From: Chlorobiota bacterium
Lineage (GTDB): Bacteria > Bacteroidota > Bacteroidia > Bacteroidales > JAADGE01
Assembly (NCBI GenBank): GCA_013153865.1
Contig: JAADDR010000168.1
Coordinates: 1-39,201, forward strand
Reading direction: 5' to 3'
DNA length: 39,201 bases
In this document: positions 28,986-31,585 of the stretch, piece by piece
Layout: each line of letters begins with the position of its first letter
Position numbering within the stretch: the first letter of the stretch is position 1
Position numbers and translations under genes: made by a program
The notes under the pieces: model-generated
The model's input: only the letters and a program-made list of their open reading frames with translations
Told to the model about the DNA's origin: nothing
The model's database searches: none

Positions 28986-29777
28986 ATGATTTACGTAAAA
29001 ACAAAAGAAGAAATAGAATTAATGCGCGAAAGTGCATTGGCGGTATCAAGAACTTTAGCATTAATAGCCGAGTATATAGACGAAGGAGTTACTACCGGCA
29101 GATTAGATAAACTTGCGGAAGAATTTATAAGAGACAACGGCGGCGAACCCTCATTTAAAGGGTATCACGGTTTTCCGGCTACATTATGTATGTCTGTTAA
29201 CGAAGAAGTAGTACACGGTATTCCGGGTAAATATGCTCTAAAAAGCGGAGATGTTATTTCTGTTGATTGCGGAGTATATAAAAACGGGTTTCACGGAGAT
29301 CATGCTTACTCTTTTAAAATAGGAAATGTAAAACCCGAAGTTTCAAAATTACTGAAAATTACCAAAGAATCTTTATATAAAGGTATAGAAGCGGCAAAAA
29401 CAGGAAACAGAATCGGAGATATAGGATTTGCAATTCAAGATTATGTCCGGAAACACGGTTACTCGGTGGTCAGAGAACTTACGGGGCACGGTTTGGGGCG
29501 AGAGCTTCATGAAGAACCTCCCGTACCCAATTACGGTAAAAGAGGGAGAGGCGCAAAAATTACGGAAGGTATGGTAATAGCAATTGAACCGATGATTAAT
29601 CTCGGGAAAAAAAACGTTCGACAATTAGCCGACGGATGGACTATAGTTACCGAAGACAAAAAACCTTCGGCTCATTTCGAGCATGATATAGCAATAATAA
29701 ACGGACAGCCGGAAATATTATCCACCTTTGAATATTTAGAAGATGTTTTAAGGAAAAGAGGAATGGAAATAAGCTGA
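28986..29777 (+). CDS. map: Methionine aminopeptidase, type I
   Basis: Map removes the initiator methionine from nascent proteins. At 263 residues it is the single-domain bacterial form without an N-terminal zinc-finger extension. The five metal ligands of the pita-bread fold are visible: Asp in ISVDCGVYKNG, Asp in FHGDHAYSF, His in ELTGHGLGRELHEEP, Glu in IAIEPMINLG and Glu in SAHFEHDIAI. The substrate-pocket His is in GYHGFPATLCMSVNEEVVHG. It is not in the usual ribosomal-protein/secY operon position of many bacteria but stands alone after nhaD. Confidence 0.97.
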   Translation: MIYVKTKEEIELMRESALAVSRTLALIAEYIDEGVTTGRLDKLAEEFIRDNGGEPSFKGYHGFPATLCMSVNEEVVHGIPGKYALKSGDVISVDCGVYKNGFHGDHAYSFKIGNVKPEVSKLLKITKESLYKGIEAAKTGNRIGDIGFAIQDYVRKHGYSVVRELTGHGLGRELHEEPPVPNYGKRGRGAKITEGMVIAIEPMINLGKKNVRQLADGWTIVTEDKKPSAHFEHDIAIINGQPEILSTFEYLEDVLRKRGMEIS

Positions 29778-29780
29778 TAT

Positions 29781-29819
29781 AAAAAAGACACGAATATATC
29801 AACTCTCGTGTCTTCTTTT
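29781..29819 (-). terminator. Bidirectional terminator, best on the minus strand
   Basis: Stem AAGACACGA (29785-29793) and TCGTGTCTT (29806-29814), 12-nt loop. On the minus strand the stem is followed by an unbroken T-run (the complement of A residues 29781-29786); on the plus strand the run is interrupted (cTTTT). It therefore ends map and, more efficiently, any transcript coming from 29857-29955 on the minus strand. Confidence 0.85.
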
Positions 29820-29856
29820 AACGATAATTAAAATTTAATTATGAGAATCACAATGT

Positions 29857-29955
29857 TTACGCTTTTTCTACTAATTTAATGAATTTTTCCAATAATTCAT
29901 CAACAACTACTTCGGTATCGCTCTGGCTTTGATTATTTTTTACTTGTTCATTCAT
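29857..29955 (-). CDS. Candidate small protein of 32 residues
   Basis: The minus strand encodes ATG (29953-29955) to TAA (29857-29859), 32 residues. The N-terminal half is polar (MNEQVKNNQSQSD); the C-terminal half (DELLEKFIKLVEKA) would form an amphipathic helix. It occupies a 337-bp gap between map and bcp that otherwise holds only a terminator and the bcp promoter. A terminator with a perfect minus-strand T-run lies 38 bp downstream, which suggests a real minus-strand transcript. No exact TAnnTTTG promoter is visible upstream; TATCTTAA near 29997-30004 is two bases off. Not recognised, and too short to be sure; coding status is an inference. Confidence 0.4.
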   Translation of the reverse strand: MNEQVKNNQSQSDTEVVVDELLEKFIKLVEKA

Positions 29956-30086
29956 AGCTTTCGGGATTTTAAAGATTTAAGGTTGCTTTCTGTTTTAAGA
30001 TACGTAATTCGGACAAAAAGGTTTCATTTTTTCTTAAAAAAATGCGAAAAAAATGAAAAGAAAATTTTAAAAGCCGAAATTTCCGT

Positions 30087-30094
30087 TAATTTTG
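30087..30094 (+). promoter_or_regulatory. -7 element of the bcp-recA promoter
   Basis: TAATTTTG matches TAnnTTTG, 20 bp before the bcp ATG at 30115. The -33 is weak. I see no SOS-box-like palindrome in front of bcp or recA. Confidence 0.5.
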
Positions 30095-30114: not shown

Positions 30115-30561
30115 ATGATAACACTGAAAGAAGGAGACAAAGCTCCCTGTATTGAAAAAATAACAGATTTAAAAAAACTGAAAGGCAAAAAACTTATTTT
30201 ATATTTTTATCCCAAAGACAATACTCCCGGATGCACCAACGAAGCGTTAAACCTCAAAGAACATTACGAAGAACTTAAAAAAGACGGCTTCGAGGTTATC
30301 GGCGTAAGTCCCGATTCGGAAGAAAAACATAAAAAATTTGCAGAAAAATATAACCTTCCGTTTAAGTTAATACCTGATACCGATAAAGAAATATTAAAAA
30401 AATTCGGTGTTTGGGGCGAAAAAAAGATGTACGGAAGAACTTACGAAGGTGTTCATCGCACAACTTTTATCATAGATGAAAACGGGACAATAATAAAGAT
30501 ATTTCCTAAAGTGAAAACAAAAGAACATTACGAACAAATAATGAAAGCATTAAACAATTAA
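30115..30561 (+). CDS. bcp: Thiol peroxidase (BCP/PrxQ-type peroxiredoxin)
   Basis: This 148-residue peroxiredoxin reduces peroxides in the cytoplasm using thioredoxin or a similar donor. The active site reads [17 protein letters not shown], with peroxidatic Cys40. Most two-Cys BCPs have a resolving Cys five residues later (CTxEAC); here that position is Leu45. The only other Cys is Cys12 (APCIEK), so the enzyme is either a one-Cys form or resolves in an unusual way. [21 protein letters not shown] and [12 protein letters not shown] are typical of the family. It is 4 bp upstream of recA and shares its promoter. Confidence 0.95.
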
Positions 30562-30565
30562 CAAT

Positions 30566-31585
30566 ATGGCAAAAAAAGAACAAGATATTAAAGCCGCAAA
30601 ATTACAGGCATTACAGTCAACACTTAATAAAATAGACAAAGAATACGGAAAAGGTACCGTCATGAAATTGGATTCTGCAGCCGTAGCCGATATCCCGGCT
30701 ATATCGACAGGTTCCATAGGATTGGACTATGCACTCGGAATAGGAGGAGTACCTCGCGGAAGAGTTATAGAAATTTACGGTCCGGAATCCTCCGGAAAAA
30801 CAACTCTGGCACTTCATATTATTGCCGAAGCTCAAAAACAAGACGGTATTGCCGCTTTTATTGACGCAGAACATGCTTTTGACAGTTATTACGCCAAAAA
30901 TTTAGGAATTGACATTGATAACCTGCTGATATCTCAGCCCGATAACGGCGAACAAGCTCTCGAAATTACGGACCATTTAATACGTTCGGGTGCCGTTGAC
31001 GTTATAGTTATAGATTCGGTTGCGGCACTTACACCCAGAGCCGAAATCGAGGGAGATATGGGCGACTCAAAAATGGGACTGCAAGCACGACTGATGTCTC
31101 AAGCATTAAGAAAACTGACTTCGACAATAGGCAAAACCAATACATGCGTTATTTTTATCAATCAATTACGCGAAAAAATAGGAGTAATGTTCGGAAATCC
31201 CGAAACCACAACCGGAGGGAATGCCTTAAAATTTTATGCTTCGGTTAGACTTGACGTAAGAAGAATAGGACAAATAAAAGACGATACGGATGTTACCGGA
31301 AATAAAACTCGAGTAAAAGTAGTAAAAAACAAAGTAGCTCCGCCTTTCAAAAAAGCCGAATTTGATATTATATACGGAGAAGGAATTTCCAAAACGGGTG
31401 AAATAACAGATTTGGGCGTAGAATATAACATTATACAAAAAAGCGGTTCATGGTACAGTTACGGAGATACAAAATTAGGACAAGGTCGCGAAGCTGTTAA
31501 AAAAATATTATCAGACAATATCGAGCTTGCGGAAGAAATAGAAAATAAAATAAGAGAACGCTTAAAAAACGGCAGTCCGGAATAA
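30566..31585 (+). CDS. recA: Recombinase RecA
   Basis: RecA forms filaments on single-stranded DNA for strand exchange and SOS signalling. At 339 residues it matches the bacterial family. Walker A is GPESSGKTT (about residues 72-80), Walker B is [10 protein letters not shown], loop L1 includes [16 protein letters not shown], and loop L2 runs through [31 protein letters not shown]. The C-terminal domain ends in the usual acidic-basic helix without an extended acidic tail. It follows bcp by 4 bp and is probably co-transcribed with it; no LexA-type operator is visible near it. It converges on the methyltransferase gene with 8 bp between stops. Confidence 0.99.

What the first reader, a model, noticed from the sequence alone, without database searches (positions are those of the whole stretch)
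29781..29955. A 32-codon gene with its own terminator between map and bcp
The minus strand has a complete small frame with a polar head and an amphipathic tail (DELLEKFIKLVEKA). A hairpin 38 bp downstream has a clean T-run only on that strand. The gap (337 bp) is otherwise unexplained. Small helical peptides of this type can be toxins, membrane-associated regulators or peptide signals.
Basis: partly seen in the sequence, partly recalled or inferred. Interest (0 to 1): 0.5.

Follow-up and report, generated by a model that had tools for sequence, protein, structure and literature searches.

The report
Stress-promoter small protein beside bcp–recA
The tiny 32-codon gene is real: it is conserved across its bacterial genus, sits next to an antioxidant and DNA-repair operon, and always carries an alternative-sigma (ECF-type) promoter, so it most likely makes a small soluble helical protein during a stress response rather than a toxin.

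Summary
The frame at 29857-29955(-) is a genuine gene. Homologues occur in 13 of 14 genomes of the genus, always divergent from bcp–recA (or recA), and none was found outside the genus. The protein is under purifying selection, with invariant V…L.EK…L residues; for the closest informative pair pS is 0.45 and pN 0.07. This is the ECF sigma-factor type. The same promoter precedes a conserved, Rfam-unmatched small-RNA-like element in 12 genomes, and in some genomes SiaC, DUF4388 and other genes: a small stress-type regulon of 1-6 sites per genome. The hairpin is real but probably serves map as well. The protein is acidic (net −2 to −8), is predicted as one helix, matches no family library, and does not look like a toxin or membrane peptide. 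Best reading: a σECF-induced helical protein that docks on a partner. Partner and function are inferred, not shown. It is a new protein family of a known kind (sigma-controlled small proteins).

The parts
29857..29955 (-). 32-codon small protein gene (stop included)
   Evidence: ORF; homologues in 13 of 14 genus genomes; purifying selection; AlphaFold helix 3-31, mean pLDDT 85
30021..30026 (-). -35 element TGAAAC of an ECF-type promoter
   Evidence: TGAAAC-N16-CGTA in 12 of 12 readable homologues; 2 of 48,000 shuffles; only match in the window
30001..30004 (-). -10 element CGTA of the same promoter; inferred transcription start about 29994
29781..29818 (-). Terminator hairpin of the small gene, probably shared with map on the + strand
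   Evidence: RNA folds: -16.3 kcal/mol, z -5.3 on minus; -11.4, z -4.8 on plus; GACAC…GTGTC-type hairpin kept in syntenic relatives
30087..30094 (+). TAATTTTG, a TAnnTTTG housekeeping -7 box for the divergent bcp–recA operon
   Evidence: sequence; conserved in the seven-genome alignment; consensus from PMC9723704
30115..30561 (+). bcp (AhpC/TSA peroxiredoxin), the conserved divergent neighbour
   Evidence: PF00578 E 2e-36
30566..31585 (+). recA, downstream of bcp
   Evidence: PF00154 E 3e-141
28986..29777 (+). map (methionine aminopeptidase), convergent neighbour; not conserved at this place in all relatives
   Evidence: PF00557 E 5e-48; other genes on this side in G001, G004, G005, G009, G011

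Best explanation
Shown: a conserved small-protein gene, divergent from bcp–recA, with its own ECF-type promoter (TGAAAC-N16-CGTA) and a terminator, giving an expected single-gene transcript of about 210 nt. Shown: the same promoter type precedes a conserved small-RNA-like element and, in some genomes, SiaC or DUF4388 genes. Inferred: an alternative (ECF) sigma factor switches these genes on under a stress signal. Inferred: the product is a soluble, acidic, single-helix protein whose conserved hydrophobic face (V18, L21, L22, F25, I26, L28) docks on one specific partner to tune that response. The most likely partner is a regulator of the same circuit (the sigma factor, its anti-sigma, or a SiaC-type switch component).
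For: Homologues in 13 of 14 genus genomes, beside bcp–recA or recA. pN/pS 0.32 over the core with pS near saturation; G003/G012 pS 0.45 vs pN 0.07; third codon positions vary most (769/599/1101). Promoter in 12 of 12 readable copies, shuffles 2 of 48,000. 42 such promoters in 14 genomes vs 3 for the reversed pattern; 24 of the 42 precede this gene or the small-RNA-like element. Helix prediction pLDDT 85. Net charge -2 to -8. Flavobacterium ECF promoters also carry a CGT -10 box (PMC9723704).
Against: No expression data. The cognate sigma factor is not identified: none of the sigma genes examined has exactly this promoter upstream. A single-helix prediction for a 32-mer says little about folding in vivo. 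The partner is pure inference; the only constant neighbours are bcp–recA, which read from a different promoter.
Confidence: 0.6

Rival explanations
1. The product is a feedback inhibitor of the sigma factor itself: a minimal anti-sigma or partner-switch ligand made from a promoter of that sigma factor. This is the specific form of the best explanation.
For: Small acidic amphipathic helix and single-gene unit with an ECF-type promoter; a SiaC-family gene shares the promoter in G006.
Against: No sequence match to any anti-sigma family; not next to a sigma gene in the loci examined.
Confidence: 0.25
2. The transcript is mainly a regulatory RNA, or a dual-function RNA, and the frame is secondary.
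For: Transcript of about 210 nt with its own terminator; a small-RNA-like element uses the same promoter; a TCATAAT stretch just after the stop is kept in the seven syntenic genomes.
Against: Selection acts on amino acids; the frame and protein core persist in G001, G004, G005, G009 and G011, where flanking RNA is not recognisably similar; the full transcript does not fold better than shuffles (z -0.8).
Confidence: 0.1
3. A membrane-active peptide: toxin, membrane regulator or peptide signal.
For: Amphipathic helix (hydrophobic moment 0.51).
Against: Acidic in all homologues, mean hydrophobicity near zero; no export signal by eye; no antitoxin partner; chromosomal core position beside bcp–recA.
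Confidence: 0.06
4. A chance frame in an intergenic region.
For: Short frames are common around it.
Against: Conserved frame, codon pattern and promoter in 12-13 genomes.
Confidence: 0.02

Closest known systems
Bacillus Sda and SinI (small helical inhibitors of regulatory proteins; from memory, not tested)
   Same: Very short cytosolic, helical proteins produced under dedicated control that act by docking on one regulator
   Different: No sequence relationship tested or found in any library; Sda is a helical hairpin, this is predicted as one helix; partner unknown here
NepR-type small anti-sigma factors of the alphaproteobacterial general stress response (from memory)
   Same: Small helical protein inside an ECF-type regulon
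   Different: NepR is longer and usually encoded beside the sigma/PhyR genes; no family match here, and not next to a sigma gene
ECF (SM6) promoters of Flavobacterium psychrophilum (PMC9723704)
   Same: CGT-containing -10 box attributed to an ECF sigma factor in a Bacteroidota species
   Different: That regulon is type IX secretion and band-7 genes; here it is a small protein, a small-RNA-like element and SiaC/DUF4388 genes
Bacillus sigma-W promoters (TGAAAC-N16-CGTA, from memory)
   Same: Same -35, spacing and -10
   Different: Different phylum; cognate sigma factor not identified here

Membership tests
ECF-sigma-controlled gene | ECF-type promoter with GAAAC-like -35, 16-17 nt spacer and CGT-containing -10 | tested here: met
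   12 of 12 readable homologues exact, a 13th with TGCAAC
ECF-sigma-controlled gene | Expression depends on a specific ECF sigma factor | not testable with these tools
   No expression data; eight non-RpoD sigma genes in the genome, cognate one not identified
Anti-sigma factor | Sequence match to a known anti-sigma family | tested here: not met
   No match in Pfam or NCBIfam
Anti-sigma factor | Encoded next to or in an operon with its sigma factor | tested here: not met
   Neighbours are bcp–recA and map or others
Anti-sigma factor | Binds and inhibits a sigma factor | not testable with these tools
   Needs pull-down or reporter assay
Membrane-active toxin peptide | Hydrophobic or cationic amphipathic sequence | tested here: not met
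   Net charge -2 to -8, mean hydrophobicity about zero
Phage-borne small protein | Match to a phage protein family | tested here: not met
   Best PHROG E 0.16, one of 14 members
Dual-function small RNA | Conserved RNA structure beyond the terminator | tested here: inconclusive
   Transcript of the window copy z -0.8; single-sequence fold only, no covariation test on the whole transcript

The most novel reading that the evidence does not exclude
An ECF sigma factor of this Bacteroidales genus runs a compact regulon in which it makes both a small regulatory RNA and a minimal single-helix protein that feeds back on the sigma factor or its SiaC-type switch: an RNA arm and a protein arm of one stress response.
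Probability: 0.2. Interest if true: 0.7.

Novelty: new member of a known kind. Interest (0 to 1): 0.5.

Why it matters
It adds an unannotated protein family of 32-40 residues, absent from the Pfam and NCBIfam libraries, in an uncultured Bacteroidales genus. It ties the family to a sequence-defined ECF-type promoter. That promoter links the protein to a conserved small-RNA-like element, SiaC and DUF4388 genes, and so defines a candidate stress regulon in a phylum where many ECF regulons are unmapped. The promoter also gives a direct way to find further members.

Tried and rejected
Promoter scan with the sigma-70 consensus found nothing useful; the promoter appeared only on comparing relatives. 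Rfam search of the regulon loci gave no credible match. Pfam, NCBIfam, PHROG and PDB sequence searches with the protein gave nothing significant. A first impression that the gene had moved in G001/G004/G005/G009/G011 was wrong: bcp–recA (or recA) stays beside it and only the map side changes; my first notebook entry still carries that error. Weak profile hits inside larger proteins (E about 0.01-0.02) looked like chance helix matches. Promoter matches L069, L114 and L115 lack an adjacent downstream start and look as if they lie inside coding sequence, so were discounted as chance. One promoter-like match in G000 (C191, upstream of an acyl-CoA ligase) lacks the extended TATA and is doubtful. 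The cognate sigma factor could not be assigned: the sigma genes examined lack the exact motif, and the sites upstream of some of them are TGCAAC or TGTAAC variants with different spacing or -10. No structural-library search was run, because a single helix would match everything.

Full report
Observation. The frame ATG…TAA lies at 29857-29955 on the minus strand and encodes MNEQVKNNQSQSDTEVVVDELLEKFIKLVEKA. It lies in the 337-bp gap between map (28986-29777) and bcp (30115-30561), which is followed by recA. Frames of this size are common by chance in this region, so the ORF alone is not evidence.

Relatives. A DNA search found the intergenic region in other genomes of the genus, and a protein profile found the small protein in them. 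Copies beside bcp–recA occur in 13 of 14 genus genomes; in G009 only recA is there, and in G002 the frame runs into masked or unknown bases. G013 has only a divergent paralogue. No convincing homologue was found in seven genomes of other genera of the family or 39 of other families of the order, or in 118 other genomes of the class. The sensitivity for so short a protein is limited. Named relatives are uncultured MAGs labelled Bacteroidales, Bacteroidetes, or Chlorobi/Chlorobiota.

Coding evidence. Six columns are invariant in the 14-sequence alignment (M1, V18, L21, E23, K24, L28), and T14-E15 and D19 are kept in nearly all. Summed over all pairs the core gives pS 0.63 and pN 0.20; G003 against G012 gives pS 0.45 and pN 0.07. 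Differences by codon position are 769, 599 and 1101 over all pairs, 2-4-9 for G003/G012 and 5-6-13 for G000/G003. Pair sums reuse sequences and are not independent. Inserts and deletions fall outside the core and preserve the frame.

Promoter. All 12 readable copies have exactly TGAAAC-N16-CGTA, ending 31-49 nt before the ATG; 2 of 48,000 first-order shuffles of the upstream regions do. G002 has TGCAAC-N16-CGTA. It is the only match in the 39-kb window. The -35 and -10 are of the ECF sigma type (Bacillus sigma-W is the textbook case, from memory; a CGT -10 box is assigned to an ECF factor in Flavobacterium psychrophilum, PMC9723704). The divergent bcp keeps a TAnnTTTG housekeeping box.

Terminator. 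The hairpin at 29781-29818 folds at -16.3 kcal/mol on the minus strand (z -5.3) and -11.4 on the plus strand (z -4.8). The syntenic relatives keep a GACAC…GTGTC-type hairpin at this place. It probably ends both genes. The predicted transcript of about 210 nt does not fold better than shuffles as a whole (z -0.8).

Regulon. The pattern TGAAACNTTTN12CGTA occurs 42 times in the 14 genus genomes against 3 for the reversed control. Twelve are the small gene. Twelve precede a small-RNA-like element with the invariant core AATAATTTTTTGGTGTTTTTATGGTTT followed by a GC-rich hairpin and T-run. Nothing in Rfam matches it credibly. Others precede a SiaC-family gene (PF09345, E 3e-26) and a Cys-rich protein in G006, a DUF4388/roadblock-like gene in G013 (a near-match precedes its relative in the window's own genome), an Rrf2 regulator in G001, and a 41-residue small protein in G012 and G013. 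Some matches are probably chance. [quoted passage not shown]

Protein. AlphaFold gives one helix, residues 3-31, mean pLDDT 85, pTM 0.44. All 12 homologues are acidic, net -2 to -8, with mean hydrophobicity near zero in the most amphipathic stretch. No family library or PDB sequence matches. This disfavours a membrane-active toxin and favours a soluble helix that docks on a protein partner.

Mechanism. Shown: a conserved coding gene, an ECF-type promoter, a terminator, and promoter sharing with other genes. Inferred: sigma-dependent induction under stress, and action by docking on a regulator of the same circuit. The cognate sigma factor was not identified. The genome has three RpoD-like and eight other sigma genes, and none of those examined carries the exact motif upstream.

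Verdict. A real, conserved, promoter-defined small protein gene, with a function still to be tested.

Noticed in passing
L053 (minus strand, promoter at 1501 on the reversed locus; G000:C167:9653 on minus); also L054, L063-L065, L067, L070, L071, L074, L080, L119, L120: A small-RNA-like element in 12 genus genomes with the same ECF-type promoter, an invariant core AATAATTTTTTGGTGTTTTTATGGTTT and a terminator hairpin; no credible Rfam match. Its core was not found (one mismatch allowed) in the other genera sampled from the order, except one hit without the promoter.
   Followed up: partly
[quoted passage not shown]
   Followed up: partly
L104 1270-1300 (G000:C37); also L152, L153, L154: One of three RpoD-like sigma genes has a conserved TGCAACATTT-…-CGTA ECF-like site upstream in all four genomes checked, suggesting one sigma factor controls another.
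   Followed up: partly
L124 2721-2900 (G006:C15); L117 (G010:C165); L125 (G000:C158): Promoters of this type precede a SiaC-family gene and a 78-residue Cys-rich protein; a near-match precedes a DUF4388 gene in the window's own genome, with a SiaC-like gene nearby.
   Followed up: partly
L051 (G012:C18) and L073 (G013:C347, two promoter copies 1.5 kb apart): A second small protein of 41 residues (MDYN…DTEIKE[IV]AD.LV..YI) with the same promoter; weakly similar to the helix of the 32-codon protein (one of two copies E 8e-5 in a 4-sequence test, the other not significant).
   Followed up: partly
L048 1501-1599 (G009:C71), L044 822-920 (G013:C596): A paralogue (MEESDKN…ENKELVEELLEKFIEL) at another locus, without the exact promoter.
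   Followed up: no
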